NCBI GenBank assembly: GCA_000611775.1
Contig: KK106982.1
Location: 6,256,495 to 6,320,494 of the forward strand
Length of the DNA: 64,000 nucleotides
Direction of reading: 5' to 3'
Origin: Umbilicaria muhlenbergii
Taxonomy: Eukaryota > Ascomycota > Lecanoromycetes > Umbilicariales > Umbilicariaceae
The translations under genes and the position numbers were made by a program. The notes below the pieces were generated by a model. That model searched no databases, had not been told where the DNA came from, and saw only the letters and a list, made by a program, of their open reading frames with translations. Below are positions 39,143 through 62,599 of this stretch, in pieces (the first letter of the stretch is position 1; each line of letters opens with the position of its first letter).

Positions 39143-40035
39143 GAACTGAAAAGGGAGTAATTTCTGAAGGCTTGGACGAGTGAGAAGGACGATGCCGACG
39201 AGGAAGTACGGGTCAAGGATGGTCGACGAAGCCATGAGGATCAGAGGCGATGGGAAAGAATGATATGCTTTCGAGCTTTTGGGGCCGCAGCTGTGATGCA
39301 GAATTCTTCCGGCAACGACACACGATGGGTTGGTGACTCCCCTTGTTTCGGATACCACTGAGCCTTCATCGAATCCAAGATACGTCGTCGGTCGTCAATC
39401 CCATAGCGTCATAGTCGGTCGGTGGAATGAGATATCACTAACAGCGATTTTATCGTGAGCCTCAATGTCTCGCTTCGGCTAGGGCGGTGTTAGAAAAAGT
39501 AATAATAATTGTGGGAAGTGAAGACAGCCATGGCCTTCCTTGGATCACTGGCTACCTCCCTTCATATTCGAGCTCATTCTTGATTCCATTTCTGTAGGTG
39601 CTGTTGAAATTTTCACTGTCACCTGCTTAGTGGCTTGGCATCCCCCCTATATATATTCGCATCATTTTTCGTTACAATTGAACTCCAGTCAATCCGTTGA
39701 ATAACTTCAAAAGGTGCCACGCCATTTTTAGCTCTGGAAGGGATCTCGTGGCCTACTTGACACAGGAAGGCTTTGTTACTTTAACGTTCTTGTTCAGTAA
39801 GGTATTGGTTGGCTGTAGGTATCTTGACTTCGCCCAAAATGCCTTCAATTAAATGTTTCACAAGTCAATCAAGACCTAGCTATTGTTCTCGTGACATGAA
39901 TCATAAAAAGCTAAGAGGACTACTTCCTACTATGGTCCCTCCGGCACTAAGTCACTTAGGCTCACAGACTGTGATCCATGGAGTAACAACACCTGCTGAT
40001 GTCTTAGTCATATGTGCACGAGGGATCTTTGACAC
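39143..40035. other. intergenic region, convergent ends
   Basis: Between the 3' ends of the STAND gene and the paraoxonase-like gene. No feature is seen; this is the probable left border of the metabolite cluster. Confidence 0.5.
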
Positions 40036-41439
40036 TCATGAGATTATACCTCCTAAAAAAAGTCTTCCTGTCTTGAAATCGTGGACGGCAGTTGTCACGC
40101 CTCTCACAATCGTCACGTCTTTATCTTCCAAGATCTTTCGCACTGTATAATCCAAACCCAAGCCTACCTTACGAATACGCCAAATCGTCGACGGAAATCC
40201 AGTCTCATACGGCTTTTTGAAGGCGTCCAAGACCTTCAGGATTTTGGGGAAGGCAGCGGCATAGATATCTCCACTATGATCTATTGATAAATTGTCGACG
40301 GGCATGCCAAGGTGTATGACGTGAAGTTCTTTCAGTGTCAGGTCATCCTGGAGCTGCATGACTCGGATCCTGTCGATGAAGGAGCTGGCAACGTAGTAGA
40401 GGCCGTTATGGCCTTGAACAATACCATTGGCGTGGTTCCAACCCGAAGAGGCTGCAAGGTGGCAGGATGAAAAATTACAATAGCCTATGCTACCGCCGCC
40501 AATGAATGGGTCCAGATGCCGGCGCTGGAAGAAACGCGTCAGCAATTTGTTCCAGTACATCATTACATAACGACTGCGGGTCTTACCAAGCCAACTACAG
40601 TTGAAAGGAGCGCGTCAAGTCAGCTATCACTACTGAATAGACAACAAATGATAGATTGTCAAGGGTAACTCTAAATACCTTTTGCAGAGTGATCATTGGT
40701 GACGATAAATGCCCCGTCATTTGCCAGAGCAAGGTTGTTGGGAGTCTCAATTATCTCACTGCTGAAAGTTTTGATGTGCAACATCTCACTCCCGTCTCGA
40801 TCGACGTCGAAAATCTCAACTGTAGAGTTCGCTCCGACTCGATAGGGGTCTAGGAACGTCTCCCCATTCTTCGTGTTCTCAACGGGATACCGATGGTTGA
40901 CCATCCAAAATCTCAACTTAGAAGCACTGACGACCTTCGCCTTAAACCCATGGAAAGCCAGATTTGTGTTGCCGCCAGGCCCAGTGTAACCTTTCGGCTT
41001 CAGTCGACGCAGGTTGAATTTATTACCGACAAGGGAATCAACGTCGAGCACCGAAACATGAGAACCGGCTAGTTCTCGGCTGCTAATGTTAAGTTTGTTC
41101 ATACTAGCAGATACTCGTGATCAGTCCCAAGGTGTTACAAAGGACCAGGGGTCTATAGTCTTATCTGGAGTTCACATACGCAGGAGCCCACTGAGAACGG
41201 AATCTCAAGCTGGCACAGCCGGCGTACAGAGACCGTCCTTCTTCATCAAGCCATATGTCTTCGCAGCCTTCGAGGTGCTCATGCCGCAGAGGATGACATT
41301 CGTATGGGAAATCCTCGATGGGCTGGAGGGTGCGACCCAGCCCGATGCTTGCGAAGAGAAAATCTTTCAGGTAATATTGGTACAAGCTGGCTAATAGGAC
41401 AATGCCTATGGAAAGTAATCTGATGTAAGATACAGGCAT
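40036..41439 (-). CDS. paraoxonase/arylesterase-like lactonase
   Basis: Six-bladed beta-propeller, Ca-dependent esterase/lactonase of the PON (SMP-30-related) family. It starts with a membrane anchor or signal segment (SYIRLLSIGIVLLASLYQYYL), as PONs do. Family motifs in order: GCEDIWLD (Ca-binding E-D), HGFKAK, TPNNLALANDGAFIVTNDHS (Ca-binding N/D region), NHANGIVQG (ANGI strand), GMPVDNLSIDHSGDIYAAAFP (DN-S-D). Exon 1 is 41439-41180 and exon 2 starts at 41103; the first junction (phase 2) is clear. Exon 2 leaves frame at the donor near 40678, and the last exon (ending at 40036) certainly includes 40524-40036. I could not find a canonical splice pair that joins these two in frame, so the second junction is open: an unusual site or a small error. 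It lies about 430 bases downstream of the PKS on the same strand, so a role in releasing or opening the polyketide (lactone) is plausible. Confidence 0.78.
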
Positions 41440-41865
41440 TTCTGATAGGGTTCGGCAGGTCGCTGGTTAGAACGCGCTGGAAAGATGCGGTTCAAGAGAA
41501 AGAGGGGCTGCCTCTCACTTATAAATACATGGTCCACAGCCGCTTGCTGTGCCTCGGATTGACCCCTCGCAGAATTGACTACGTGCATACGGATATGCTT
41601 CGCAGCCTTCGACCTAGAGCATGACAAAGTCCTGTGCATGACCACCTCAAGACTTGTGAAGCTGAGTTGTAAAGCGTTTAAGAGTCTGAAGATAGCTAGA
41701 CTATAGGTGATAGAGAATATTGGTAGCCCTTCTGAGGCGAGTGGGGGCTTTACAACACTATCAAAACCTGCTTGATAGCCTCTCCCAATTCAAGAATTTT
41801 TAAAGCCGTCCGCAGTGTCTTAACTTTCCGATCCTACCAGTATTCCATTTTCCCACCACCCAGCT
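41440..41865. other. short intergenic space between PKS and lactonase
   Basis: About 430 bases separate the PKS stop from the lactonase start on the same strand. It must hold the PKS terminator and the lactonase promoter; no specific site is recognised. Confidence 0.5.
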
Positions 41866-44800
41866 TTATCTAGAAAGATCTACAAACGAGCTTCTTCCTA
41901 CGACTATCTCACTGAAGTCCACAATGCCGATGTTTTCAAGTATCTCAAAAATCGCCACGTCTGCTCCAATCTCTTTCGCTAGCCAATTTCTTAGCTCTAC
42001 GGCCACTAAGGAATCCGTCCCATAGCTCGTTATCGAGTTATGTGTGTCGATGTCCTCCATAGGGAGAGACAACACTTTTGATAGTTTTTGCTTGATTGCG
42101 TCGGCCACCACTTCTTTTGCAGCGGAAACAGAGCCTGTGGAGTTCAATAGTATCCTGTAGTCAACCTGCGTCTTTAAAGCCGCCGATGGACTAGACGTGT
42201 CATCATCCATTTGGAAGAGCGTGCGGCACATCGGTTGCCGAAGCCAGTACGGCTCGTCAATTCCTTTCATCTTCAGTGCAGCGGGAGTCTCAACACCGAC
42301 TATGACTTGGCTCTTCATAGGGGAGAGAACCGGAAGTGATGGGTCGCAGTAGTATTCCAGAATCACTTGCAGTTGGGCTTCCTCGACCCCAGAGTACCCC
42401 GACAGCAGCAATGAGCTCGCAACTTCCTGTCTCTCCGCCACGAATCCTACCGACTTTATCATAGCAATATCCAAGGATACGGCTTTTTCTCCAAGGTGAA
42501 CCCTGTGCTTCGCCAGCGCGTCTTCGTAAGCATTGCCAGCTCCGTAATTTGACTGGCTCATGGTGCCAAGAATGCCATTCAACGAAGACAGTAGGATAAA
42601 GAAGTCCATTTCTTTTGGCAACAGAGTATGTAGATTCCATGAGCCTTGAACTTTGGGCCTCAGGGCGGCATTGAAGTCACTTAAGGTCATGTTTTCAAAA
42701 ACAGCATCCTGAATCCTCAAGTTAGTGCTTCCCTAGTAAAAGATTAAGCGCCAGCCTAACTCACCTTTAAAGCCATCGCTGCTTGGATGCACCCCTTGAT
42801 TGGAGGCATAGTGCCGCTACACTCCGCTAGAGCTTTGGATAGAGATGGCTGATCACTTATATCACATATGGGCGTTTTTACTCTTATACCCTTCCTCTTC
42901 AAGTCTTCCAAGAAGGCACGAGATGAATCGTTTGATGCACCAGATCTTGAAACCAAGATAAAGTTCTTTGCACCTTTGTCGGCCATCCATCGGGTGATAC
43001 TTCGTCCTAAACCTCCGAGACCACCAGAAATGAGATATGATGCACTGGAGTCAAAACAGTACTTGGGTGCGAAATCTGGGACGACCTGAAGGCAAGCATG
43101 AGTCAGTCAAGAGGCTCAATTTCATCCTGGTTCACTGATTGAGGGCTACTTACCGGAACAAGATCACTATCATTCAAGGTGATCACCACTTTCCCCAAAT
43201 TTCGTCCGCTCTGAAGGAATCGGAAAGCTTCTTCAAGCTGAGAATAATCGTAGGTATGAGCGACTAGTGGGGCAATCTTGCCCTCACCTAGCAAAGCCAT
43301 AACCTCCTTCAGGATGTGCCCAAGTTTACAAGGAGCGTTCCGCATCATTAGTGAGATATTAACCGAGGAGAAGGTAACACTCCTTGAGAATGGAAGCATT
43401 GGCAGCCCCCCATAAGAGCTCAGATCTTTGATACCAATCTCGACGAATCGACCGAACGGTGCTACACAGTCCCAAGTTCGTCGGAGTTTCTCACCAGTCA
43501 GGGAATTAAGAACAAGATCCACGCCATTATATCCTGTAATCTTCTTGATTCCATGGGCAAATGACAGGCTTCTGCTAGAGAATATGTGGCTCTCCGGAAT
43601 ATCATAGCGACTCATGATGAGCTTCTTTTTGTCCTCTGTTCCGACAGTGACATAGATATTTGAGGTGGAAGTAGAGAGCATCGCTAGTTGAATCGCCGCC
43701 TGACCAACTCCACCAGCTGCACAGTGGATTAGTACGGACATGCCCTCTCGCAATTGTCCAAGTTCGTACAAGGAGTAGTATGCCGTACAGTAAGCCATGG
43801 GTACTGCGGCCGCAGAACCATATGACATATAGTCAGGAATCTTGACGACTGTAACTGCCTTGGTTCTGACGTACGTCTTGTAAGCTCCTTCTGCAATGCA
43901 GCACACGCGATCTCCAACTTGATAGCTATCACCGACGTCTTTGCCCAATCGTGTAATGATACCGGCACATTCGAGCCCAATGTGGTCGCTCGGAACTTGA
44001 CCTAGCAGCACGAGAACGTCCTTGAAATTGAGACCAGTAGCTTTGACCTTCAGCTCAACCTCATCAGAATGTAGCGGTTCATCGAACTTGACGTCGGTGA
44101 TGAACTGTATAGTATTGAGCAGGCCAGGCGAAGCAACGCTCAAAGATAGTGGCCAAAGTGGATCTCGTCCAATCATCTGAAGCTCTGCTTTTGGCTGCGT
44201 TGTTCGTGAATAGACAAACTGATTCAGGTAGTTGGCTTCAACCAGTCTGCCAACAGAGAGATGACTGTTCTTCTGTACGTATTCCTGTTCAACCGGTTGA
44301 CGCTCCGGAAGCATCGTGTTCTCGAAGATCTTAGTGATATCTTGAACTAACGTTGGAACATCATTGGTGTCCTCAAGCGCAACCGTCAGGAATGACAAAT
44401 TACTGTACTCTGACCGAATACATCTTGCAAAGCCAGTAACCAAGTCCAGGTCTGGCATCTTTGCAGACGTTCCTCCGCCTTTAGTAACCCAGATAATAGT
44501 GCCGGCAGAGGTTATTAGCATTTGTAAGATGGCGAATTGATCCGCATCAAGGTTACTTAGAAGCGGAGCTTCAACTTCAGGCAACATGACAAAGCACGCT
44601 CGATTTGCGATAGTTCGAGGGATGTCTCGAAGACCGATCACGTTACAACTCGGAGTGCCAGATGATAGAAGCTGTAACTGTATCTGAGTCGCGATAGCGA
44701 TTTGCAGCTCGGAGCCTTCCTTGACAATGATAGACGTCTCCGGCAGTTCTGGACCGCGAGGGCTGTTCACTTGATGTAGAGCAGTTGACATAATCGCACT

Positions 44801-47800
44801 GTCTAGATGCATCCGCTCGCTCTGATGATCTCGGAAGATGAGGTCTGCACCAGAAAACCCGTTCCTGGATAGAACATGATGCCAATCTTTTTCGGACAGC
44901 AGAGCGCCCCATTTTCGGCTGTCTTCCGTGCCTAGCCACCATCCCGGCAAGAGTCCGAATATGAAGCTTGAACGGAGGACTGACGGGTTGCAGAGTTCAA
45001 ACAAGACAAGCTTTCCTCCTCTGAACTTATCAGCAACTGAATGAGTTCTGGGGTTCAATAAGGGTCTCTCACGGTTTCATTAATTTTCGCGTATTCCGTA
45101 ATGTGGTATCAAGTCTAGGCGTTGCATGCAGAACCTAACAAGTCAGGACCTTTGATGTCTTGGCGATGGAAGATTCCACTCACGTTCACGGCAATAACCA
45201 AGTCGTAGTTCCCGTATTCAAAGCCCTGTTCCGCTGGATCTGCTGTAATGTCCAGAACTTTAAACGTCATACGATTGGCCTGGTTGGCAAACTGCTCCCT
45301 TGCCTTCTCGAAGAACGACGGAGAAATATCGGTGAAAGTATAGTGAGAATACCTAGCGGCGCCAGGCTCAGCTTCTCCGTGTTGGGTTAAGATGTCCATT
45401 ACCGCCACGGTTCCGCTACCCGTCCCAGCACCAACCTCAAGAATGTTTAAGCCAGGGTTCTTGTGCACAAATGCATTCAGATATTTGGCAACCTTTGGGA
45501 ATGCGTTTTCATTTTCCATGGCCCAGCGGTAATAGTCATCTACCAACTCTCCATTGAATAGTAGACCAAGTGCATCAACGTCACCTTTGAGGATAGGAAC
45601 AAGGTTCTCTCGGACTGCATTGCAAAGTCTTCCCTCCGGATTACTGTTCGCCACCCGTCGGAAAAGGGATTCTTGGTACTGAGGATTGGACAGAAGCTCT
45701 GCCCACTCCGGGCGGCCGTGTATTAGCGTCCCATTTTCATACTTTTCTATTTGAAGCTTCATCCAGTCGTAATACCTGGCGAGATGCGGCTTCAAACTGG
45801 TTATTAGGCCTTGAGACAAATGTTGAAGAGCTTGTGATATTGACAAGAAGCATGTGAGTTCTGTCTCCTCCACTACTTGATCAATGTCCTTTTCAAGGTT
45901 GCTTGAGACACTCGAGCAGTAGTTCAGCATCTGGTCTTTGCCCAACGTATCAAGATCTGGACGGAACTCGAGGTTGAAGCAGAGCCTCCTGGGGGCTGGT
46001 AAGTCTGCTGACTGTGCAGCAGCGCTCCCAACAGCTACCGCTTGTAGACCTTCAATAAGAACCTGGGACTCATTGGAGAGAGACTCCAGGGCAATGAGGT
46101 TGGAATTTGTCTCGCGCAGACCAGTGAAACCAGATTTCGTATAGACCTTCATACCTCTATTCTTTGATTGGTTTAGCAAAGATTGCGAAACCCACATCTC
46201 ATTTATCTGTGTCGGAACTAGGGTCGGAATAGGGTTTTTACCACCTTTGGAAAGCGCTGAGAATACGGACTGCAAGATACCATCCAGCGTAATAGGATGG
46301 ATGACATGTTCTGCAACGGAAACTTTGGGGAGCTTTTTGGTCCAGTCTCCTATCAAAACAAATGCCGTAGCTTCGCCGTTTTCATTGCACTGAACATCAC
46401 TGAGTGTTTGAAAGCACGGGCCGAATCCGTAACCGAAAGTCTCCAGACGTTTGTAAAGCTGCGCTGAGTCTACATGTATTGCACATCTCGCTCTTCCATC
46501 GTTGTAAGTCTGCCCTTCTGAGATAAGACAGTTCTCAAGTGCTTCATGCACGCCGTCGTCAGATCCGAGTTGAACGTCGTGCTCTACGACAATGACGCCT
46601 CGGAAGCTCTCTACCCAGGCCTTGTTCTCATACGTACATAACCGGAAGTTGTAGGGCATGAAAGATCCGTTGCTGGCGTCATGATGTGGTTTGAGGGAGA
46701 GAGACGTCTCTGTGCCCTCCTGGTCGTGTCTTATTTGTATGGCTTTTGCAAACGTAACCTCTTTAAGTCTGTAGCCCTTGATGTTAACTGAAGTACCAGC
46801 CATCTGTCTTGCTGCTTCGATAGCCATAACGATCATCCCTGCTGCAGGATACAGGGTCACTCCATCGACCTAAGAGATAGTCAGCGGTGGCAGAATTATT
46901 GGCAATAACGTACCTTGTGATCACTAATCCAAGGGTTCTCGGATTCTCGTATAAAATGGCGCCATTGCGGCTCCAAGAGGTTCCAATTTCTAGCGGTAGT
47001 ACCAAGTAGCTCATGTGGAGCGCGCGGCCGGAATCGAAAGTCTTTGCTAAGTCTACTCTCGAGCCAGTATGTCTGCGAGTGATTGAAAGGATATTCTGGG
47101 AGATCAATCAGCATGCGAAGACCCTCTCTATTCTCGATCTGATGATTGATAGCCGCAATTCTGACTGGGTATCCTGAGCAATGCAGGTGCCCGGCCGCTG
47201 CTAATGAGGTTTCTAGCGCACAGATGTTGCGCGATAGCATTGAGGAGTATGCAATTGTGCCATTCTTTCCAATACACTTAAGTGTCTCTTTGAGGGGTCC
47301 TTGAAGCGCTGAATGTGGACCAACCTCAATAAGGTAGTCTATCACAGTACTGTCGTCGTTGCCATTAACTTTCGTTTCATTCGGGCCCGAGGTCTGAGAA
47401 CACATTGCAGTGACAGCGCGAACGAACTGTACGGGGCGTATTAGATTCTCGGCCCAATATTTGCTGTCTCGAAGACGCTCTGGGTACAACTTTTCACCTG
47501 ATACTGTGGAAAACATGGCCGCTGCAGGAAGAGATGGCGTAGATTGCCCAGGGGCAATGTCGTCAAGAAGTCTTCCGTATTCCAATGCAATGTCCTGCAT
47601 GTATATTGAGTGATATGCCACAGTGACATTGAGCTTCCGAGCGAAGATTTGCTGACTATCCAGGGAAGCCTTAAGGGTATCTATCTCGTCGTCGGCACCA
47701 GTAACAGTGACGTTATCTGGGCTGTTAATACACCCGATAGTAAGATTCATCTTCCTATTCTCGGTGCCGAGATGACGAAGGCGAGACTCGGCTTTTGTTG

Positions 47801-50321
47801 CAGAAAGGCCGACCGATAACATGGCTCCACGTGGTTGAGCGCGTTGGGCTACTTTAGAGGACAGAAGACCTCGGTAGTACGCAATCTTCCACGCTGATTC
47901 TTGCGAAACACCACCAACACAATAAGCAGCAGCTATCTCACCGGATGAGTGCCCTATGACTGCGGAAGGATAAACGTTCCAACTTCGTAAAAGGTCCACT
48001 AGCGCCACTTGCAATGCTGTGCATAAAGTCTGGCTGAAGGTAGGCTGATGCATTTGGAATGTATCCTTCTTCAATGCCAATTCGTCTAGACAATATAAGT
48101 CTCGACTTATTCATTCGGATTGATCATCTCACCTAATACATTCCACTCACAGCCAAGAGACTGTAAGTACGAATTGGCCTTTTGGAGACTCTCCCGAAAT
48201 TCCGAATATATCAACAACTCACGTCCCATGCCATACCACTGTGCCCCTTGGCCGGTGAAGACGAACCCTAGCTTAGGCCTCTGACCGGAGCGAATAGGTT
48301 TGGGTAAATCCATTTCAAGATGCCGTTGTAAGTCATTTGTCGATTTTGCGATTGCAAAGGACTTCCATGACAAAGTATTGCGCTTATCGGTAACTGTGTA
48401 TACTAGGTCTTCGAAGTAGAAGGCATCGCGTAGCAGATCTGGACATGAGAGGCTTGCCAAATGATTGCGATAAGCACTCGCAAGGCGCTTGATACCGCCC
48501 TCGTCAGATGCAGACCACACAACCAACCTTGGCCTCGAGGTTTCTATTACATCGTTGGCCCCGCAACGGTGATACACGTTTTGGCTGCGCAAGGACATAC
48601 GATTCTCGATCAAGGGCGGTAGATTTCCGAGCTGAGGCGGATTCTCTACGGTACAATGATTGCCGTCAAGGCTACGAAGCTTAAGGTAATGGCAAGCGTC
48701 GTCTAGAACAACATGAACGTTCGAACCACCATAGCCGAATGAATTGATAGATGCTCGGCGCAGCCCGTCTGAGGGCCACGGGGTAGGTTCAAGTGGGAAC
48801 TGTTTATGAAATCAGTCATGTAACTTGTTGGAAAAGCGGTATTATAAGAGTACCTTTATGTTCCATTCATCCGTCAGTATTCTGGGGTTTGGTCTTTCGA
48901 ACCAGATGTTTGGTGGAATTATACCCCTCTCCAAGACTAAAATTGATTTTATGAGGCCAGCAATACCACTAGCCCCCTCTAGGTGACCGATGTTGGACTT
49001 TACTGCGCCGACGAAAAGAGGTTCCTCTTTAGACCGTTGACTGGCAAAGACGGCTCCAATGGCACGAGCCTCGAGAGGATCACCAACTGGAGTGCCAGTA
49101 CCATGAGCCTCGAATAATCTTGTCGTTTTCAAGTCTAGACCGCCTAACTTATAAGTTTCGCGGATAAGTGCCTCCTGGGCAGAACTGCTTGGTTGTGTGA
49201 TACTAAACGATCAGTCCTCGGCCTAATTGAATTTGAGAATTTGACTAACCCAGGTGTTCTACCGTCTTGGTTGGTACCGGTAGCGCGGATGACTGCTCTA
49301 ATCGTATCTCCATCCCGCAGAGCATCTGCGAGCGGCTTGAGGACTACAACGCCGAACCCTTCCCCACGTGAGTAGCCGTTTGCACGATGATCGAAACTAT
49401 AGCATTTGCTATCGGGAGAAAGAAAATTCAGGTTTGTCATAGGAATCATAAGGTCAGGGTTGTAAAAAAGATTACAACCTGCGACAAGTCCCTGTTCTTG
49501 TGTTAGCTTATGAATTTGCGACTTTGTTCTTGCTAGATTAACCAATTGACTCTCTCCACTCCGTAGACTTTGGCAAGCTAAGTGAAGTGCTAGAAGGCTG
49601 CTTGAACATGCCGTATCAAGCGCAATACTTGGCCCAACAAGGTTGAAGAACCAACTGAGACGATTGGCAAGCATTGCAGTACCAGTGCCTGTTGCCATAT
49701 ACTTTCCGTGCAACTCAGGGTCTCGAAGTAGTATGGTTTCATATTCCCTAGTGAAACTTCCAACATGAACTGACGTTTTTGAGCCAGCAAGATCTGTAAG
49801 CAGAACTCCCGCTTTAAAAGTATCAGTCTCAACACACCCCATAAAGTCAGAGTCTATTACCATTTTCTAGAGCTCTGTAGGCACACTCGAGTAGGCCTCT
49901 TTGTTGTGGATCCATACAGTTTGCTTCTGCAGGCGTGATAGAAAAGAATGGGGCGTCAAAGGCAGCGATGTCATCCTGTATGAAGTGACCTCCTCTCACA
50001 TTAAGCTATTTCTAAGCGTCAATACTGCATTATCAGGAGATAGCATCTTCAGATGAGGGCACACACAGCGTTGGCTCGCGTAGTATCTGGGTGGTAAAAG
50101 GCTTCGAGGTTGAATCGACTTTTGGGAACATCTGTCATTGCGGAACGTCCTTTGATCAACATGTCCCAGAAGGTGTCTGCATTTACTGCCATTTGCGGAA
50201 ATTTTAAAGCCAAACCGATGACTGCAATGGGCTCCATCCTGTCACCAGGAGTTATGCTGTCTTCCAAAAGTTTTTGAAACCCTTCCGAATGCTCATGCAT
50301 GCCGAATGAGACGTTGGCCAT
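41866..50321 (-). CDS. highly reducing polyketide synthase (KS-AT-DH-MT-ER-KR-ACP)
   Basis: Iterative type I PKS that builds a reduced, C-methylated chain. Twelve exons (minus): 50321-50067, 50005-49861, 49811-49543, 49491-49250, 49202-48854, 48799-48133, 48085-46914, 46869-45184, 45134-45073, 45020-43154, 43085-42765, 42708-41866; introns are 44-68 bases, all GT-AG and in frame; 2,625 residues. KS: DTACSSS (Cys ~202), EAHGTGT (His ~338), KSNIGHLE (His ~378). [18 protein letters not shown] (Ser ~690). [14 protein letters not shown] (His ~1032) and HPITLD (Asp ~1228). C-Me[11 protein letters not shown] (~1512), completed by the 62-base exon 9 ([18 protein letters not shown]) and GGKLVLFEL, so it looks active. 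[15 protein letters not shown] (~2045). KR: GGLGGLG (~2260) and [10 protein letters not shown] (Tyr ~2405). [16 protein letters not shown] (Ser ~2580). There is no thioesterase, reductase or condensation domain, so release needs a separate enzyme. Confidence 0.97.
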
Positions 50322-52674
50322 GATATAGCTAGAGAGTGCGTCTTGAGGACTGAATAAGGACGAGATAAATGGATCAACTTCAGGTTCCCTAGACCTAGAA
50401 CTGAACAGGTTTCATCTTAGTAACTTAACTCTTGAAAGAATTCTCATAAGAGAGCAAACCCAATGTTGGAAGTAAGTCGGAGAAGGATTACTGGAGCCGA
50501 TAATCAAATGCAACACAGGTTATGTCCACGGCTGAGTAAAATCCGAGGAGGCTTACATGAGGCAAAGAATCTCAGGTTACATATTAAGATTCGGAACTCT
50601 CATGCTCGAGCACAGAGTGAAACTAGAACGTGTAACCCCTGTACTCACCACTTATGGCTGGCACACCATCTTGAACAGGCCTCTGGGAAGGTGGCTAGCT
50701 CGCGTACAGCGCTTCAGAACCCCTGCGCTTATCAAGCTCTATCTAATCAAAAGCTCCGTAGTTATCATAGTGGACATCGCCTAGGCCCAACCTCACTTCG
50801 AACGAGGCAATGCCTGATGCAGAGACCAAACACAGCTACCGGTAGGGTTATTCGCCCCACCGGCCCGCATTAATCCTCCAATCCTGGAGCGTCGATCTAC
50901 ATGCTATCATCAAGCTGAATATCAAACAATCAGAGCTTGATCAGCCTGCATAAATGACCATGTCGGGCTTGTTTCGGGGCCGTCAGATGGGGATATCCAC
51001 ACCAAAAGAAATCTAGTTACACCGCTCCACATTACTAGGGCAATCCAGCCCGTTCTCAAACTAAATTACTAGCGAAAGACTCGACTTCGCTGGGCAGCCG
51101 GCGCCGCAGCACCGCCTCAGTTTTTCAGCTTGTTTTTCAGCGTTGGTGTTCAGCCTCAATCTAAATAACATGATTGCAAAGACCTTCGCTCTCGCTATTT
51201 TAGTGTTATGAGTGTAGTTAGCGTCTTTGGATGAACAGCAGCTTACTATGAGCATATAGTTAGATTTTCCACTTAATAGAACACACACAATTCATTATTC
51301 CCAATCACACAGCTAGCTCGTCAACGGCGTTATCACCAACATCATTGCTCAACTTCAGGAGGCTGCATCCCTCCAAGCCACCCCCACTAAGCCCGTCATG
51401 GCAGGTAGTCAAGCACGGGCGTCATCCGCCTGCTTTTTTATTTTAGTATAGCGACGATGCAGCGCGAGGCTTACACCCTACTAAGTTGGGCCTCACGTGG
51501 ATACCGCTGTCTGACGGCCCTGAGACAAGTCAAATCATGTCATCATGTGAGTGGTTTCCTGTTTCCTTGCCTCAGCAGTGCAGAACAAATCAATACTTGA
51601 TGCATGAGGCGCGGAACAGGTCTGGCTGACGTGAGCGCACGTCAAAGTCAAATTATGTTGCAGTGAAAATAAAAGACCCCATTTGAGGTATAGTTAGTGT
51701 TCATGCTGACATAGCGCTAGATATCAAATACATGAATTACAATGATAATTGACTTTGAATATTAAAAACTTGACAGAAAACATCAGATGACAAATCTGAA
51801 AATAATGGTTCATTTTTCATGGAATCAGCCATCTAAGATATGTAATGTACTTTTAGGTTGTTTTCTTTGAGGTAAAACAAGCATGTTGAGCCAGCATTCG
51901 TACTAGGGACAAAACCGCGGGTCATTCAGTGAAATCGTCGATCCGTCTGAACCATTTTCGATCTAAAGCAGGACATTCAAACTGTCGGAACAGTCATGAT
52001 CACCCTTCCATCCAGGTAAGGAATAGTGTGTGATTGACATATCTGTAGGTTTGACAACCTCTGTCTGCTGTGCATGCAACCTATATGGCTCTTTTGCAGG
52101 TTCGTGGCGTACGATCTATTGCTACTTCTGTCAGCATGACATTGGTTTGCAATTTCTTCGCCTCATTCTTGCCTCCTCCATGCCGTGACGAGGTGCACTC
52201 TCTTGATGATCAAGTGACTTTGTTTGAGATTCAGCCTACCTCTTACATTGCTTGTTTCCTTCTGAGCATCTCTCTGAGGGATTCTCAGCTAGGATCATTC
52301 AACCCATGAACTTGCCTTTCATCGCATGCGGCACATTCTGACTACAACGCCTCAGGCTTACACTACATGTGGCATGTTCTCCGATAGTCTGCATGATCTA
52401 AGTTTTCCACATGCAGTGTGAAATCATGACTAGCTAGAGATTTTGCGCAGCTGTGACGGCTGATCTTTCAACCGTAATTTTCGGACCAGTCAAGGCTGAA
52501 ACGCGCAGACATGTCATAGCTGTGGTATTTCCTGAATACAGAAGCGCTAGATGAATTAAAGATTAAAGCACTACCATTAGTCTAACTATAAAGTCTTTGT
52601 TATCATACGCTCACCTCCACGCTTAATACCATTCTACAGTTGTCCTGTACGCTTTTTGGCTACCACAAAACAAC
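50322..52674. other. divergent intergenic region of the PKS cluster
   Basis: A 2.35 kb space between the divergent PKS and rhodopsin-domain genes. It should hold both promoters. Open frames (136 codons at 50463-50873, 79 at 52070-52309) show no domains. The stretch 51650-51870 is AT-rich. A TATA-like TATAAAG occurs at about 52587, about 90 bases before the downstream start. Confidence 0.5.
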
Positions 52675-53905
52675 ATGGTTACTCTAAATTCTAAGGGCAC
52701 TGCAGCCATCTGGCTCGGAGCGGTAGTCCTAATTCTTGATGTCTTCGCGATAGTGCTGCGTGTTCTCGCCCGAAGATTCCGACGGATTTCCTTTGAAGCT
52801 GATGACTATTTGGTCTTCCTGGCTCTGCCGTTGCAATTTGCTTATGTCGGGATATTGCTTTGGGGTAATTTCCAATCTGTCTAGCGGAGCGCCTCGCTGA
52901 CAAGCTTTCCCACAGGTGTAGTAGCGGGTGGAGGCGGTGCTAGCATTTTTGTTATAAGTCTCACAGAGCTCACGGCGCTCATGAAGGTTTGATGTCAATT
53001 AGCATTCAAGCTGAGGAAATGCTGACAACTCTTAGGTGCAATATATCGCCGCTTTTTTTCTCAACTCCATTTGCACCATGGTCAAGCTATCAGTCCTTTG
53101 TCTTTATCGTCGTGTATTTGCCGTGTCTAAAGAATTCGACAACATCAGCAAAGTCATCAGGAGTATCTGTGTGGCCTGGTATGTTGTCGCTCAGTGCTTC
53201 GCGCTTATACCTTGCCAACCCATCAGCGCGGCATGGATTGTTGGCCCCGGAGGCCCTTACCCTTCAGACCACTGCATCAACTTTCCAGTTTACTTCGTTT
53301 GCATTGAGATCACGAATGTGGTTCTTGATCTAGTTATTCTCAGTCTTCCATTCCAAATGATACGTCGACTTCAACTCCCAACGCGTCAGAAGATCTATCT
53401 TGGTGGCATTTTCCTTCTCGGTAGCTTGTGAGTCCCCGTTGTTTCGGCCTTTAAATGATTTGTGTCTAATAGTTGAGAATAGTGTCTGCATTGCCGGCTT
53501 GTTACGCGTATCAATTGTCTACCGGCCGGGTGATAAGAGTTAGTTCATAGCTCCTCGCTTCATAAATTTGGTACTTAATGGCATACAGTGTCCCTCATTC
53601 TTCTCACTCATCTCTCCATAGTCGAGACCGGCGTTGCCATTATATGCGCCTGTCTCCCAACCTACCGACCTCTACTTGCTCATAAACTTCATGTTTTGAA
53701 CCGTATCAGGGAGTGGTACAATTCAAAAGAAATTACTGGATCGAACGGAACTAGCTACTCAGACACTATCCAGTTCAACAAGCTTAGCGATCCATCTTCT
53801 AGCACCGCTCACTCTGTCGAGGTTATTGGGATACCTCGAAGCGGTAGGGGAGATGAAGAAGACTACCCTCTTGATGTGATATCTTTTAACAATACAGTTC
53901 GGTAG
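52675..53905 (+). CDS. rhodopsin-domain integral membrane protein
   Basis: Fungal seven-helix membrane protein of the 'rhodopsin domain/PTH11-like' group (Pfam Fung_rhodopsin), often found in ascomycete metabolite clusters without known role. Exons are 52675-52864, 52916-52986, 53036-53427, 53483-53538 and 53589-53905, all in frame; 341 residues. Seen: helix 1 AAIWLGAVVLILDVFAIVLR, then the family's RxxRR...SFEADDYLVFLALP motif, FLNSICTMVKLSVLCLYRRVF (helix 3 with the usual LYRRVF end), AWYVVAQCFALIPCQPISAAW, FPVYFVCIEITNVVLDLVIL with SLPFQMIRRLQLP, a GGIFLLGSF helix, and a VETGVAIICACLPTYRPLL seventh helix. The C-terminal tail is hydrophilic and cytosolic by analogy. There is no CFEM domain. 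It could be a receptor-like or transport-related protein; no ligand can be inferred. Confidence 0.88.
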
Positions 53906-55297
53906 TCGTAGCAATGCAAGGAAAGGGTGTTACCGATCAAAAGACAATAGCGGCGGTTGAGGGTCGGACTTGACAGAATAAGTGAAACGATTAGCTAGAA
54001 TGCAGGCACCCCTCAATATCTACATCAAATAAATGCTGGTGTTGCTTGTAAAAATCCTCTGCTACATCATAAAACGCCAAACTCTGAATTCACTGTCATA
54101 GTCGAATGACAAAGCTCGTTCTTGTAGGTCTATGTGTATTTGTTGACTTTGCTCTTTCCTCACCCCAATAATAGAGCGGTCTGGTTGCCTAAGTCCAACA
54201 TCCGTAAATTTGTTTAACGTGGCGTTTCGATTAACATGGTATTTGAATTAAACGGAAATTTACGGCGTACCTTGTAAAAGGATCTGGCGGCCCTTCGAGT
54301 TATTTTCTGGCGAGTCAAGGCTACGATTCAACCTATCTACTGCATGAGCACACTCTTTCGAACAATCCCTGCCTTCGCATTCGATGCAACCAGCAAGGCC
54401 GCACAGACACTGTTTTCCGTTCTGTTTCAAGTCGTCCTACGGAGCCGTACATCACAAGTGATGACTCGCGCCTTGATACTACAGGCGCCACAAACAGGTA
54501 GGCTACAGGGGGGTTGCAGGAAGTAGGGCAGAGATAAGGGAGAGCAGAGGCGTGAATTTTCCGGCAGTGAGGCGGGGACGGCGGCGACAGCGAGGCAGCT
54601 GCCCTAAGGTAAGGTGGCGGGTTCATGCGTGTGGCACATGCACGCAGTCACACATGCAGCACCTTACCGAGGCGCGAGTCATCACTTTTGGTGTACGGCT
54701 CCGTATGCGGCGGCGTTGGTACTTCCAAGCAGGGATCGGGTCAGCCGTGCTGATCAGACCCCGCAGACAGATTGCATCTGCAAGTTCTGCTCGACAGCTT
54801 TTCATCTGCTCTCCACCTGTCAACGGCGTAAGCCCATGATAGTTGCAGCTAACCCTCCACCGTTCCAATTTTCCTGTAAGGCAAAATGCAATGAGCGGCA
54901 CTATAGGAATCCGCATGCTCCCTTGCTCATCATAGGAATTGGCTCACACCGCCCCGGATGAAAGTTCCAACTCCGCCAGTGAAGAGTTCTAGACGGTTGG
55001 CGCCGATCAACTACTACCCCCACAGCCGTCTGCACGCCGCATGAAAAAGAGGGGCTGAAGTCCTGCAGGTCTCGGTTGCGCCTTGCTCATGACAAAGGGT
55101 TGCGCAGATGAGGACTAATTTTCGCAATATAAAGCACCTTGAACTAGTGACTGGAAAACCCATCCCTTTCAGCGTTCCCTAACTACCCTGCCGTGTTAGC
55201 GATAATAATTGAGAGTTTATGATATTCTCACATTACACTTTCTTCTCATTCATATCACAAAGCTGTTTTCACCTAAAGGGTTTCATCCTGTTCTACC
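53906..55297. other. intergenic region
   Basis: Contains only short frames on both strands (54333-54961) without domains. The final part is the promoter of the hydrolase gene. Confidence 0.5.
55125..55134 (+). promoter_or_regulatory. TATA-like element upstream of the hydrolase
   Basis: The sequence CAATATAAAG lies about 165 bases before the start codon of the alpha/beta hydrolase, in a stretch without other AT-rich words. A TATA role is inferred only from sequence and position. Confidence 0.4.
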
Positions 55298-56407
55298 ATG
55301 AGTGAGTCGACTCAATCATTTCGCTCCCATCAACCGGGCAAAGCACTTTGGACTCTTGTTGCAATCACTCATGTTATTGCTCGCATGTTCATACTGAGCA
55401 TTTACTATCTCCCAAAGTCCACGCGTCAACACCATGTTTGGACATACCGCCAAGCTCTGGCGAATGAATTACTCAGAACTTCTTTCTACCACATGACAAT
55501 CATCAAATTTCTACTTCCCATTTCAATGGAAGCTGGAGCGGAGAAAGAACGGTTCATCATGATGGAGCCGAAGGGTGATATTTACCATGGACCTTTCGGG
55601 ACATCATCTGTTCAGCCAGCTACTGTTGGAGCTACTTGGTATCCAGAACTCCGCAGCACTGAAGACAAGCAGAGTACAGTGGTCCTTCATTTCCATGGTG
55701 GATCCTTCCTGTGGGGTCAAGGACGACAGGCTGACTGTGGCTTTGCCGCATCAACACTTGTGAAATACATCTCGGCCACAGCACTTTTCGTACAATACCG
55801 GCTTGCTTGTGATCCCGCCTGCCCCTACCCTGCAGCAGTTCAAGACGCGCTCACGGCCTACAAGCATCTCCTCGACATGTGTATTCCTGCTTCAAAGATC
55901 GTGCTGTCCGGTGACTCAGCGGGGGCCAACATTGCTATTGCACTCTTGCGATATCTCTCTGCTCCGGAGGATCACGACTTGCCCAGCCCAGCGGCACTCT
56001 TGCTTTGGAGCCCTTCGGTAGACCTCGCATCGCAAATGGATCCTACCACAATTGATCACCACAAGAACAACAAGACGGATTATATCACCGGTTCTACACT
56101 TGTCTGGGGAGTCAGTTCTTATGTTCCCAAGTCCATACAAGCAAGTGAGCCCTACCTCTCTCCTATTCGTCACCCGTTCGCCACACGGACGCCCATATGG
56201 GTTATGGTCGGAGGCGTGGAAGTGCTGTACGACAGCATCGTTGGCTTTACCAACCAGATGCGGAGCATTGGTGGAAATCGGGTGGAGTTGTACGATGTAC
56301 CTGATGCTAACCATGACATCTTGTTCGTGGGTCATGTCACTGGCTGGGCCAAAGAAGCGGAAGAAGCTGCACGTGCCGCTGCCACTTTCTTGCAAGACAA
56401 ACTGTAG
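55298..56407 (+). CDS. alpha/beta hydrolase, HSL type
   Basis: Intronless 369-residue esterase/lipase of the hormone-sensitive-lipase branch (PF07859). After an N-terminal region with a hydrophobic stretch (LVAITHVIARMFILSIYYLP, possible membrane association) come the oxyanion-hole motif HFHGGSFLWG (HGGS in place of the usual HGGG), FVQYRLACDPACPYPAAVQD, the nucleophile elbow LSGDSAGAN (Ser about residue 207), and the C-terminal catalytic His in DANHDIL; PIWVMVGGVEVLYD supplies the acid. The triad is complete. In metabolite clusters such enzymes release chains from HR-PKS carriers, hydrolyse esters or close lactones; which applies here cannot be told. It is co-directional with the next gene (FAD monooxygenase) with about 480 bases between. 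Confidence 0.92.
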   Translation: MSESTQSFRSHQPGKALWTLVAITHVIARMFILSIYYLPKSTRQHHVWTYRQALANELLRTSFYHMTIIKFLLPISMEAGAEKERFIMMEPKGDIYHGPFGTSSVQPATVGATWYPELRSTEDKQSTVVLHFHGGSFLWGQGRQADCGFAASTLVKYISATALFVQYRLACDPACPYPAAVQDALTAYKHLLDMCIPASKIVLSGDSAGANIAIALLRYLSAPEDHDLPSPAALLLWSPSVDLASQMDPTTIDHHKNNKTDYITGSTLVWGVSSYVPKSIQASEPYLSPIRHPFATRTPIWVMVGGVEVLYDSIVGFTNQMRSIGGNRVELYDVPDANHDILFVGHVTGWAKEAEEAARAAATFLQDKL

Positions 56408-56888
56408 TGTGGAGGCGATTTTATCAGTGGTAGAAGGATCCGATAGCTCCCACTCCTAGAAGGAAAAACATTCAGTCTTGCATAAATGCTTAAGCTCAAA
56501 TGGTTCTAATTGAAAGTACAACCTGCGCTGAATTTCCGGATCTATATCCACTATGGTAATACGTTTCGCCTAGGTTGAGGCAGGTCAAAGGAAATCCCCA
56601 AGGTCAAAATTCTATTAATATGATATACGGCATTAGTTCGAATGCAGTCTGTCTTTATAATGCAAGTGGAACCTCATCCACCCCTCTCCCAGCCTCCTTG
56701 ATGGGGCGCACTGCCTTATTTGCTCATGCTACACTGTGGCACCACTATCGAACAGCAGCATTAGAAATAGCTTGATACATCTTCTTCGAGGCTTTCAACA
56801 GCACTGCCCCCTCCGTGGATTTCTTAACGCTCTGTAATGCCAGTGACACTTCATACAAGGATCGCAAGCCTACCATTAACATCTAGCC
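56408..56888. other. intergenic region
   Basis: About 480 bases between the hydrolase and the monooxygenase. It must carry the monooxygenase promoter; no site is recognised. Confidence 0.5.
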
Positions 56889-58285
56889 ATGGCACGAGAT
56901 GCATCTTTGAATGTTGTGATCGTCAGTGTCTTGTTCAAAGCATTTAGATCACTATTGCAGCTAAAATAATGACAGATTGGGGGTTCCCTGACTGGTCTTA
57001 TGCATGGTATCATGCTCAAGAGGCTAGGTCATAACGTCCGCATCCTTGAACGAAGCCTCTCCTCGATTAGGGACAACCAAGCCGCCGGTATTACCGCTGG
57101 ACCACAAGTACAAAGATACCTTGAAGAGTACGACATTTGCAGCAAACCTTGGTTCTTGAGTGCCCCAGGCGTCAAGGTGCTCGATAAGGCTTCGCAAGTG
57201 GCGCTATATCGAAAAATGGACCTTCGCAACACCAGCTGGGACGTGCTGTACTATCGGCTTAGAGCAAATTTCGATGCCCTTGAAAGCGAATACTGCCCCG
57301 AATTTCCACTCCATGGCTCGGAAGTTAGTGGTCAAGTTTCGTTCGATTGCGGAAAACAGGTCACGAAAGTGTTGACCATCCATGAATATGTGTCTGTTGA
57401 ATACCGGAATCTAGTGGACGGTACAGACGGAAGCGTACTGGCGGATCTGGTCATTGCAGCAGACGGCGCTAACTCTATTACTCGTACCATGGTGCTGTCA
57501 GCCCCGGATTTGCATCGCCCGTACTCTGGATATCTGGCGTGGCGTGGAACTGTGCGCGAAGCAGACATCTCAGAACCGACAAGAGACACACTTGGGTCAG
57601 AAAATAATGTTTACATCGCAGCTCAAAGCTATCTGATTGTGTAAGCCTCTGCTTCAAGCGCCAGATACTTGTTTTAACAACTGACTTCGCCTATAGGTAC
57701 ACGATTCCTGGACTGAATGGAAGTCTCAAGAAAGGGGAGAGAGTTCTGAATTATGCATGGTATCACAACTGTCCAAAAGAGAAGTTACCAGATACTCTGA
57801 CGGACATCGATGGCCATACACACCTGTACTCCCTCCCGTCCGGAAAGATAAGGGACGTCGTTTGGCAGAAGCAGAAAGCTATTGCTGAGGAAATGCTGTC
57901 TCCGCCTTTTCTGGAGCTCATCAACAAGACTCAAGCGCCTTTTGTTACTGTTGTTAGTGACACCATGGCGTCACAAGCCTCATTTTTCAACGGCAAGCTC
58001 TTTCTTGTAGGAGACGCACTCACACTATTCCGACCCCATATTGCTATGAGCACTAATCAAGCGGCTTTTGACTGTCTTCTTTTGAGGGACTACCTTGATG
58101 GTACGATCACGCTCTCAAAGTGGGAAACAAAGGTGTTACAGTACGCCCGGGTCCAGCGGTTGAGAGCTATTACTTGGGGCACATACTTTCAAGTTGGATG
58201 GGCTGCATACCTGATAAGTGAGGTCCAGTATCGCGCTGAGGTGGCTTCTCAGAGGCTGAGCGATTTCTGGGGCTTACGTAGATAG
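56889..58285 (+). CDS. FAD-dependent monooxygenase
   Basis: Flavoprotein hydroxylase related to the UbiH/salicylate-hydroxylase class, closest by feel to 2,6-dihydroxypyridine 3-monooxygenase-like enzymes; uses NAD(P)H and O2. Exons are 56889-56921, 56976-57640 and 57697-58285, all in frame; 428 residues. The tiny first exon (11 codons) is needed to build the Rossmann start: LNVVI joined to IGGSLTGLMHGIMLKRLGH. The fold's Asp motif is ADLVIAADGANS. The second FAD motif is FLVGDALTLFRPHIAMSTNQAAFD (GD plus the following Pro helix). The C-terminal KWETKVLQYARVQRLRAITWG region is typical of the family. It has no membrane segment, unlike the FMOs of meroterpenoid clusters. It is the last gene before the repeat-rich right end. 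Confidence 0.9.
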
Positions 58286-59100
58286 TAAGTGGTAAAGCGG
58301 CTACAGGAGACAACGTGAGCATCTGAATAGTGTTAGGCTGATCTTCAATGTGTCTTCATGTTTTCATACATCATTTACGTCACAGTTGACTGTTTGGAGA
58401 ACCATCAAATTACCAACCGTCAAGGCAGTTGTTCTCCGCATGGATGCATTTGTAACCTAAACAGCTTTAATACAATTTGTTGCATGCGGAGAATCATTCC
58501 TCCGCCCCGTCCTGCAGCAGCCACAATACGCCCGCAACGGGGCATTCAATGCCCTACATGTGCTCAGCCCAACTATAGGCGCTCAGTCAGTGTAGGCAAG
58601 TCTTGACGAGGTTGAAACTAGGGTATTAAATAAGCTCTGATTTCTATGAGACTGCTTTTTTCTTTACATTCATTATTATTAATTTAAGGTAATATTTAAG
58701 GGTCTTTATCTTAAAATGACACTCCTTAATACATTGATATCTGTTAGGTTATAGCGCCTCTTATCAAAATGATCCACCGTGAGGGGACCTCTCGCTTGAG
58801 GCATGAGCTTGCATGACTAAGCAAATAAGCGGACGGGACGACGAGTTTTAATCACGTGCAGGCCATAGCCCTACCGGCTTTAATGTTATTCCCGCTAAAC
58901 GTCATTATATACCAACCTCGGGGGCTGATTTTCATTTATTTTATATGTTTCAGGTTTACCCAATAGAGATTTTAGATAGATATGTAGATTGTAGCCTCAT
59001 AGCCTTTGAATTCAATTTTCGAACACTCTGTTTATGTTTGTTTGAAAGCACGCGTTTTTAAACCACCAAACATCATACTTCAATACAATATGACATCATT
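58286..59100. other. AT-rich transition region
   Basis: GC content drops from about 58620 on. No coding frame is credible. This is the border between the metabolite cluster and the transposon graveyard. Confidence 0.5.
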
Positions 59101-59120
59101 TACAGTAAGTTATAGCCTCA

Positions 59121-59260
59121 TTCTGCTGCCTGCCTCCGCCGCTGCCTGCCTCCGCCGCTGCCTGCCTTCAGCGCCTCCGCCCCTGCTGCTGCTGCCCCTG
59201 CTGCTGCTACCGCTGCTGCCTCCACTGCTGTTGTCTCTGCTGTTGCTGCCTTTGCTGTTG
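59121..59260. repeat. GC-rich CTG/CCG/CTGCC low-complexity island
   Basis: Imperfect CTG, CCG and CTGCCTGC units run for about 140 bases in an otherwise AT-rich block. Read on the minus strand it gives an Ala/Thr/Glu/Gly-rich frame preceded by MIRKRLPVGTKNYATAKA. It retains CpG sites that the flanking DNA has mostly lost. Confidence 0.85.
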
Positions 59261-59574
59261 CGTAATTTTTAGTACCAACTGGCAGGCGCTTGCGGATCAT
59301 ATTTCATAACCTTCAGGGGAGACCCCTGGAACCTCCCTCTCATTCTTTGCCCTGCTGATATATGTTTCAGACTGCTGCAATGTGATGTGACTTCGTAGTG
59401 TGACTTACTAGTAATATTTCTCTGTTCAGAACTGTTCAGAGTTGTTTGAACACACATCCACACACCTTCTGAATGAAAAGTTGTTCAATTGATGCATTGC
59501 AGTGTTCTTTTCTGATGATCCTCCTCCTGCATATCCTGAATCACAGAGGGAGCCTGTGAGAATCTAGATATATA

Positions 59575-59850
59575 AAAGGGTTTTTCAAACATCAAGCCCT
59601 GAATCATTCAAACACGGGAAATTGTCACATAAGTAAGCTCAAGAGAGTGATCTTTTGTACTGATATTTAAAATTACCTTATCAAGCGTTAAACCCTGTGA
59701 TTTGTGAACAGTGATAATGTATACAAGAACAGCAGGGAACATCTTTTAATTATAAGTGACTGAATTGACCTCTCATTCATGCTGAACAGGTATAATCAGT
59801 ATCATTGACTGTTCCTCTGAAGTTCACTGGCAAGGCCTGTTTTCAGCATA
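59575..59850 (-). mobile_element. PIF1-like helicase relic (Helitron type)
   Basis: On the minus strand a block reads MFPAVLVYIITVHKSQGL, then TLDKVILNIS, then LELTYVTISRV, and after a stop MIQGLMFEKP. This is the C-terminal signature of PIF1 helicases (A-T-HKSQG-TLD-V ... YV--SR), here in the form carried by Helitron rolling-circle transposons. An upstream part (VPIIPVQHE-like text followed by VNSVTY) fits the segment before it, with further stops. Helitron ends (5' TC, 3' hairpin-CTRR) were not found. It is a degraded DNA transposon fragment; a decayed host PIF1 copy is the alternative. Confidence 0.7.
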
Positions 59851-60239
59851 ATTATCTGAAATGAATCAAAGCATGCAAGGCAGACTGATGAGTGAATCAT
59901 CTTTTGAACATCACATCACATCATACAGTGTGCTCAGAGTCTCATTGTCATGAGTTAATGACAATCCTGAACTCACGTAGGGTATGCGCCCTGTAAGTGA
60001 CTTGACAGCATTAATGAGTTACATGAAAAACTCTGCACTGCTTGATCTCACCTTCATTCCTTAGTTATTAGTTCTATATAGTTAGGATCATATAATGTTA
60101 TACATTTATATCTCATGCTGTCATGAACCTTGACTATACTTCCTTTTCTAATAAGGGATGCTATAATCTCACAGTTTTAATAATTTTACCTTTTAAAGAG
60201 TGATGACCTGAGATAAGATGCAGACTTAAAATCAACTAC

Positions 60240-62230: not shown

Positions 62231-62337
62231 TCATGAGTGCCTTCCTTTGCTACGTGATAGTTCATACTAGTAGTGTACTTATATAATCACAGTTCTATGA
62301 GAATGATTCTGTCAGGGCCATCATATATAGTAGTATG

Positions 62338-62369
62338 ACAGTACAACAGTACGACAGTACAACAGTATG
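62338..62369 (+). repeat. 16-bp tandem duplication
   Basis: ACAGTACAACAGTACG is followed directly by a second copy with one mismatch. It lies just after the end of recognisable Ty3/gypsy sequence and could mark a junction. Confidence 0.8.
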
Positions 62370-62599
62370 TCATTATAACTCACTTATATGATGACTCAGT
62401 GAGTAGCGCCTTGGCATCAAGTGAAAACTCTTCACAAGGAGGTTCAAAAACCTGCTTCCTCAGTGATCAGTTTTGCCATCAAATAAAAGATGTATAATCA
62501 TTGCATTGACCTCATCATGACTATATTGCTTATGACACTTCATTCAAACATCATTATGACACTCTGTCATACACTCTGCCTCTTACATACTGATCACTC

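What the first reader, a model, noticed from the sequence alone, without database searches (positions are those of the whole stretch)
40036..58285. Apparently undescribed HR-PKS cluster with lactonase, hydrolase, FAD oxygenase and rhodopsin-domain protein
Five genes in 18 kb form a coherent pathway set: a fully reducing, methylating PKS, a paraoxonase-like lactonase, an HSL-type hydrolase, a flavin monooxygenase and a seven-helix membrane protein. I do not recognise this combination from a named pathway. It lies next to a repeat-rich block, a common setting for accessory clusters.
Basis: partly seen in the sequence, partly recalled or inferred. Interest (0 to 1): 0.75.

Follow-up and report, generated by a model that had tools for sequence, protein, structure and literature searches.

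The report
Orphan fungal polyketide gene cluster
Five neighbouring genes in an unnamed fungus look like a small, uncharacterised gene cluster for making a methylated polyketide; the kind is ordinary, and its most interesting part is a receptor-like membrane protein whose family recurs beside several polyketide synthases of the same genome.

Summary
Spliced by hand, five genes at 39952-58285 read without a stop: a 2622-aa HR-PKS (KS-AT-DH-MT-ER-KR-ACP, no TE), a paraoxonase-like protein, a Pth11-like (PF20684) membrane protein, an HSL-type hydrolase and a dihydroxypyridine-hydroxylase-like flavin monooxygenase. I read it as an orphan HR-PKS cluster: new member of a known kind, product unknown. 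One shared pathway is plausible, not shown: the intergenic regions share no 8-mer, and no paralogue of the three tailoring genes lies within 120 kb of a ketosynthase locus. New detail: the KS groups (0.999) with two others of the genome, and all three PKSs have a Pth11-like gene on the 5' side. The other two also have an FSH1 hydrolase there; the window has none. Of 60 Pth11-like loci, 6 lie within 10 kb of 21 PKS loci (0.81 expected), more than kinases (1 of 105), about like P450s (4 of 75). That Pth11-like receptors occur near PKS genes is in print (PMC12842992). Fungal genomes and MIBiG were unavailable, so 'undescribed' is unproven.

The parts
41866..50321 (-). HR-PKS gene, 12 exons, 2622 aa, KS-AT-DH-MT-ER-KR-ACP, no thioesterase domain
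   Evidence: Spliced model; Pfam domains; active-site-like motifs read off the sequence against recalled consensus (positions); best solved match LovB 7cpx over the KS
39952..41439 (-). Paraoxonase (PON)-like lactonase candidate, 5 exons incl. an 8-nt exon, 394 aa, N-terminal hydrophobic segment
   Evidence: phmmer to PON1 chains E 1.8e-12 over residues 163-343; hydrophobic segment 1-21
50322..52674 (.). Intergenic region between the divergent PKS and Pth11-like genes; no FSH1 hydrolase found here, unlike the two related loci
52675..53905 (+). Pth11-like (PF20684, 'Fungal rhodopsin domain') membrane protein, 5 exons, 341 aa; PF20684 was its only Pfam match
   Evidence: PF20684 E 7.9e-50; hydrophobic segments
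55298..56407 (+). HSL-type alpha/beta hydrolase (PF07859), single exon, 369 aa, GDSAG motif, N-terminal hydrophobic segment
56889..58285 (+). Flavin monooxygenase, 3 exons, 428 aa, 2,6-dihydroxypyridine-hydroxylase-like (PF22607 + PF01494)
   Evidence: 2vou E 5.4e-26; PRK07236 E 1.2e-76, 258 bits against a cut-off of 333
58766..64000 (.). Right boundary: dispersed, mostly AT-rich repeat; 58766-60050 is 98.5% and 60000-61500 is 100% identical to a stretch near the end of contig C3

Best explanation
An orphan highly reducing polyketide biosynthetic cluster. The PKS builds a C-methylated, at least partly reduced chain (shown: domain set; inferred: product). It has no thioesterase domain and, unlike its two closest paralogues in the genome, no FSH1 (LovG-type) hydrolase beside it, so I infer that the chain leaves either by lactonisation to a pyrone or with the help of the HSL-type hydrolase. 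The monooxygenase, of a class that usually attacks electron-rich rings or enols (general knowledge), then hydroxylates the product, and the PON-like enzyme opens or closes a lactone ring. The Pth11-like protein most likely senses or regulates rather than catalyses. Release, oxidation, lactone chemistry and sensing are all inference.
For: Five open spliced genes in 18.3 kb with the assignments. Motifs expected of active enzymes are seen in the PKS domains, hydrolase and monooxygenase (patterns read off these sequences and judged against recalled consensus; positions). In the PON1 alignment N168, H184, N224, D269 and N270 are kept and D169 is Asn; E53-D54, H115 and H134 equivalents are placed by eye from recalled PON1 motifs. 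The C5 paralogue has other residues at both His positions. The KS groups with C5:1134k and C1:8386k at 0.999, and both of those loci show PKS + Pth11-like + FSH1.
Against: No regulator, transporter or P450 recognised in the block; no shared upstream 8-mer; all 8 non-self places found for lactonase, monooxygenase and hydrolase are 120 kb or more from any KS locus of the same contig, so their tie to a PKS is not seen twice in this genome; no expression data, no cDNA and no other fungal genome to test synteny.
Confidence: 0.6

Rival explanations
1. Only the PKS and the Pth11-like gene, a pair that recurs in this genome, belong together; the lactonase, HSL hydrolase and monooxygenase are unrelated neighbours in an accessory region, for example detoxification genes.
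For: PKS + Pth11-like recurs at C5:1131k and C1:8390k while relatives of the other three genes were not found there; their paralogues lie 120 kb or more from any KS locus; no shared upstream 8-mer.
Against: Enzyme classes typical of tailoring lie within 7 kb of the PKS with gaps of 426-2353 bp; the lactonase starts 426 bp after the PKS stop on the same strand.
Confidence: 0.25
2. The membrane protein is a biosynthetic membrane enzyme, as the membrane-bound epoxide hydrolases and the transmembrane cyclase DovD of alpha-pyrone pathways are, rather than a receptor.
For: Membrane-bound tailoring enzymes occur in HR-PKS clusters (PMC12312803, passages seen); lactonase and hydrolase here also have N-terminal hydrophobic segments.
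Against: PF20684 at E 7.9e-50, the family filed as Pth11-like receptors (PMC13308352, passages seen); 54 of 60 loci of the family in this genome are more than 10 kb from any PKS locus.
Confidence: 0.1
3. It is a cluster already characterised in a journal or database that could not be searched here.
For: MIBiG, GenBank fungal genomes and most subscription papers were not available.
Against: No title or abstract listed by searches describes this gene set (listings, top rows only); aur/ctv/ast and tre clusters differ in content (passages).
Confidence: 0.2

Closest known systems
Aurovertin / citreoviridin / asteltoxin clusters (aur, ctv, ast; PMC12312803, passages seen)
   Same: Methylating HR-PKS, a flavin monooxygenase and a hydrolase in one cluster
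   Different: The paper gives their PKS architecture as KS-AT-DH-cMT-KR-ACP without ER, with an O-methyltransferase and a membrane-bound epoxide hydrolase; here an ER domain, an HSL-type hydrolase, a PON-like protein and a dihydroxypyridine-hydroxylase-like enzyme, and no separate methyltransferase recognised
Lovastatin nonaketide synthase LovB (PDB 7cpx) with the release hydrolase LovG (recalled)
   Same: Best solved match of the KS (E 1.7e-171, stretch 30-489); the two paralogous loci carry an FSH1 hydrolase, the LovG family (recalled)
   Different: No FSH1 in the window; LovB's own ER is inactive (recalled)
Treconorin cluster (tre; PMC10682982, passages seen)
   Same: HR-PKS plus alpha/beta hydrolase
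   Different: tre has P450, alpha-glucosidase and a cyclase-like protein; none was recognised here
Oryzine and sporothriolide clusters (PMC6162547, PMC8403587, passages seen)
   Same: Lactonases in a fungal biosynthetic cluster
   Different: Fatty-acid-synthase based; the oryzine lactonases are compared with gluconolactonase there, not with paraoxonase
Pth11-like GPCRs in fungal biosynthetic clusters (PMC12842992, passages and section 3.4 read)
   Same: 327 Pth11-like GPCRs (4.2%) in clusters, most often near PKS and NRPS-like genes
   Different: Section 3.4 reports counts; here three related PKSs of one genome with 5'-side Pth11-like genes are described

Membership tests
Fungal highly reducing type I PKS | KS, AT, DH, (MT), ER, KR and ACP in one chain | tested here: met
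   motif positions
Fungal highly reducing type I PKS | Makes a reduced polyketide | not testable with these tools
   No chemistry available
Paraoxonase (PON) lactonase | Similarity to PON with calcium ligands and His115/His134 | tested here: inconclusive
   PON1 E 1.8e-12 over residues 163-343: N168, H184, N224, D269, N270 kept, D169 is Asn; E53-D54, H115, H134 by eye only; no Pfam or NCBIfam hit
HSL-type alpha/beta hydrolase | PF07859, HGG, GDSAG, Asp and His | tested here: met
   E 3.8e-34; motifs at 131, 205, 309, 337; NCBIfam HSL subfamily models match below their cut-offs
Flavin monooxygenase, dihydroxypyridine-hydroxylase-like | PF01494 / PF22607 with nucleotide-binding, DG and GD motifs | tested here: met
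   substrate not testable
Pth11-like class XIV GPCR | PF20684 match | tested here: met
   E 7.9e-50
Pth11-like class XIV GPCR | Seven helices and signalling through G proteins | tested here: inconclusive
   A crude hydropathy scan gives several overlapping hydrophobic segments, not a clean count of seven; signalling not tested
Biosynthetic gene cluster (one pathway) | Co-regulation or conserved synteny | tested here: inconclusive
   No shared upstream 8-mer; only the PKS + Pth11-like pair was seen again; no other fungal genome available

The most novel reading that the evidence does not exclude
In this PKS clade a Pth11-like receptor goes with the synthase and senses the cluster's own product or precursor, giving autoinduction or self-protection, and the HSL hydrolase with the PON-like enzyme has replaced the FSH1 release enzyme of the sister clusters. 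That would give an orphan receptor class candidate ligands.
Probability: 0.12. Interest if true: 0.65.

Novelty: new member of a known kind. Interest (0 to 1): 0.3.

Why it matters
Orphan HR-PKS clusters are common (general knowledge), so the cluster alone adds one more. The useful part is a testable pattern: three related synthases of one genome each have a Pth11-like gene on the PKS 5' side. The ligands of the Pth11-like GPCRs studied in three fungi are said to be unknown (PMC13308352, passages seen), and PKS-linked copies suggest candidates: the linked polyketides.

Tried and rejected
Considered and rejected: (1) A broken PKS: every frame break is closed by a GT-AG intron without a stop left. 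(2) A second copy of the cluster: best non-self matches are 48% (lactonase, an exon), 48-49% (monooxygenase) and 47% (hydrolase). (3) A hidden FSH1 hydrolase: none of the 6 FSH1 loci (7 matches) is in the window; FSH1 frames of the sister loci match the window at best with E 0.037, at 15.2 kb. (4) One lineage of PKS-linked Pth11-like genes: in a tree of 21 (window plus 20 of the other 59 loci, a core stretch only) the six PKS-linked ones are scattered; only window and C5:1131k are sisters, weakly (0.683). (5) A shared promoter motif: none. (6) Classical RIP in the AT-rich flank: TpA/ApT is 0.57-0.62 there against 0.75-0.77 elsewhere in the window; CpG is at 0.09 of expectation instead. (7) Species naming: not pursued; I used no fungal reference set.

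Full report
Setting. The window is C2:6256495-6320494 of an unnamed 34.8-Mb genome in 7 contigs.

Genes. From the raw strands I placed introns by hand and translated. PKS: minus, 41866-50321, 12 exons, 2622 aa. Lactonase candidate: minus, 39952-41439, 5 exons, 394 aa. Pth11-like: plus, 52675-53905, 5 exons, 341 aa. HSL hydrolase: plus, 55298-56407, one exon, 369 aa. Flavin monooxygenase: plus, 56889-58285, 3 exons, 428 aa. The 21 introns are 44-100 nt, all GT-AG. The 8-nt exon of the lactonase is the least certain part. No cDNA was available. Ten leftover open frames in the gaps of the block and just right of it have no Pfam match at E 0.01.

Domains. The PKS has KS, AT, DH, methyltransferase, ER, KR and ACP matches and no thioesterase match. 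The membrane protein is PF20684 (E 7.9e-50). The hydrolase is PF07859 (E 3.8e-34); its best solved relatives are esterases, and NCBIfam HSL models match below their cut-offs. The monooxygenase is PF22607 plus PF01494; its best solved relative is 2,6-dihydroxypyridine hydroxylase 2vou (E 5.4e-26), then TropB (3.6e-7); NCBIfam PRK07236 matches at E 1.2e-76 but with 258 bits against a cut-off of 333. The lactonase candidate has no Pfam or NCBIfam match but matches 8 PON1 sequences, best E 1.8e-12. There PON1 N168, H184, N224, D269 and N270 are kept and D169 is Asn; E53-D54, H115 and H134 equivalents lie outside the aligned stretch and were placed by eye from recalled motifs. Its paralogue at C5:1256k has Val and Asn at the two His positions, in an alignment that also runs over stops. 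The motif positions come from patterns that I had read off these very sequences and judged against recalled consensus; they locate the motifs and do not test them independently. The best solved match of the first 867 PKS residues is LovB (7cpx, E 1.7e-171, stretch 30-489, the KS).

PKS relatives in the genome. The 45 PF00109 matches fall into 23 loci by my count. I dropped two before counting: a locus with a 1675-aa frame at C1:7329807, judged to be fatty-acid synthase, and a short match at C3:632846; 21 remain. One of these, C2:2498k, shows only part of a KS (107 residues aligned, 30% identity) and may be a fragment or a divergent KS. The KS tree holds 19 of the 21; C5:504k and C2:2498k were left out for short coverage, and eight others are represented by partial stretches (262-273 residues). 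The window KS is 68.7% identical to C5:1134k, 61.4% to C1:8386k and 52.6% to C6:780k. The window, C5:1134k and C1:8386k form a clade at 0.999; the order within it is unresolved (0.380). Both sister loci have a Pth11-like gene and an FSH1 hydrolase on the PKS 5' side. The genome has 6 FSH1 loci; 4 lie within 7 kb of a KS locus, none in the window. So the HSL hydrolase may do the release job here; this is not shown.

The Pth11-like link. The 78 PF20684 matches merge to 60 loci, one of them (C1:7800k) below the family's cut-off. Six of 60 lie within 10 kb of one of the 21 KS loci against 0.81 expected under uniform placement (p 1.7e-4); 4 of 60 within 5 kb against 0.45 (p 0.001); 6 of 60 within 20 kb against 1.54 (p 0.004). 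The window pair prompted the test; without it the count is 5 of 59 (p 0.001), without the doubtful C2:2498k locus 5 of 60 (p 0.001), without both 4 of 59 (p 0.006). Uniform placement ignores gene-poor DNA, so I compared two families. Kinases: 0, 1 and 2 of 105 loci within 5, 10 and 20 kb (Fisher p 0.016 and 0.0097 at 5 and 10 kb). P450s: 2, 4 and 9 of 75 (p 0.24 at 5 and at 10 kb; at 20 kb P450s have the larger share). The control lists are capped: 126 of 226 kinase and 92 of 146 P450 candidates were scored, against 95 of 95 for PF20684; exons were merged at 1500 bases for the controls and 1000 for PF20684. So Pth11-like genes are about as PKS-linked as P450s and more so than kinases. By strand and position 5 of the 6 lie on the 5' side of the KS; C4:3051k does not. 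In a tree of 21 Pth11-like sequences (window plus 20 of the other 59) the PKS-linked ones are scattered; window and C5:1131k are weak sisters (0.683). Repeated recruitment is therefore at least as likely as joint descent. The general association is in print: PMC12842992 section 3.4 (read) reports 327 Pth11-like GPCRs, 4.2%, in biosynthetic clusters, most often near PKS and NRPS-like genes.

Against one pathway. The 8 non-self places matched by lactonase, monooxygenase and hydrolase are 120 kb to 1.06 Mb from the nearest KS locus. The monooxygenase paralogue at C1:9584k lies 2 kb from a Pth11-like gene without a KS locus nearby. The four intergenic regions share two 7-mers (2.98 expected) and no 8-mer (0.06 expected), which neither supports nor excludes co-regulation. 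The nearest transcription-factor-domain frames seen are at 24976-27302, and the left neighbour has PigL_N, winged-helix and ankyrin matches; not every frame of the window was scanned.

Right boundary. A 1.5-kb probe from 60000-61500 gives 41 rows: itself, one 100% match near the end of C3, and 39 rows at 86-89%; only 40 of 267 first-look candidates were scored, so this is a lower bound. The C3 match extends left to 58766 at 98.5%. AT-rich sequence was read without a break from 59.3 kb to 20 kb beyond the window, and a 500-base sample at C2:6345000 is still 32% GC; at 6350000 it is 41%. CpG is at 0.09 and CpC at 0.53 of expectation, TpA is low.

Literature. Ten searches ran. Searches found no paper, one unrelated paper; 28, 33, 38, 43, 58, 63 and 65 were seen as listings, of 28, 33, 58 and 65 only the top rows. 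Passages were seen of PMC13308352, PMC12842992 (section 3.4 whole), PMC8403587, PMC6162547, PMC10682982 and PMC12312803. None of what I saw describes this gene set. MIBiG, GenBank fungi and most subscription papers were out of reach.

Verdict. The genes are confirmed, the kind is ordinary, the product unknown. Interest 0.3, mainly for the recurrent PKS + Pth11-like layout.

Noticed in passing
   Followed up: partly
59300-64000, L009, L010: The AT-rich block has CpG at 0.09 and CpC at 0.53 of expectation with CpA/TpG raised and TpA low: a CpG-directed rather than classical CpA-directed repeat mutation pattern.
   Followed up: partly
L032-L033 (C5:1127000-1146999) and L034-L035 (C1:8380000-8396000): Two sister HR-PKS loci with a Pth11-like gene and an FSH1 hydrolase 5' of the PKS; the C1 locus also has an AMP-binding C-terminal domain frame beyond.
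   Followed up: partly
L038:5851-7173: The only other PON-like place found in the genome lacks both conserved His and shows stops in the alignment; it may be degenerate or carry introns.
   Followed up: no
36358-39142: NLR-like gene (PigL_N, winged-helix and ankyrin matches) 0.8 kb from the lactonase end; its middle frame was not scanned.
   Followed up: no
L036:7096-7530 and L037:3-1311, 6725-7486: A paralogue of the cluster's monooxygenase lies divergent to another Pth11-like gene, with an FMO-like (PF00743) frame nearby and no KS locus.
   Followed up: no
34439-35401: Frame with a DUF7924 match, left of the NLR-like gene.
   Followed up: no
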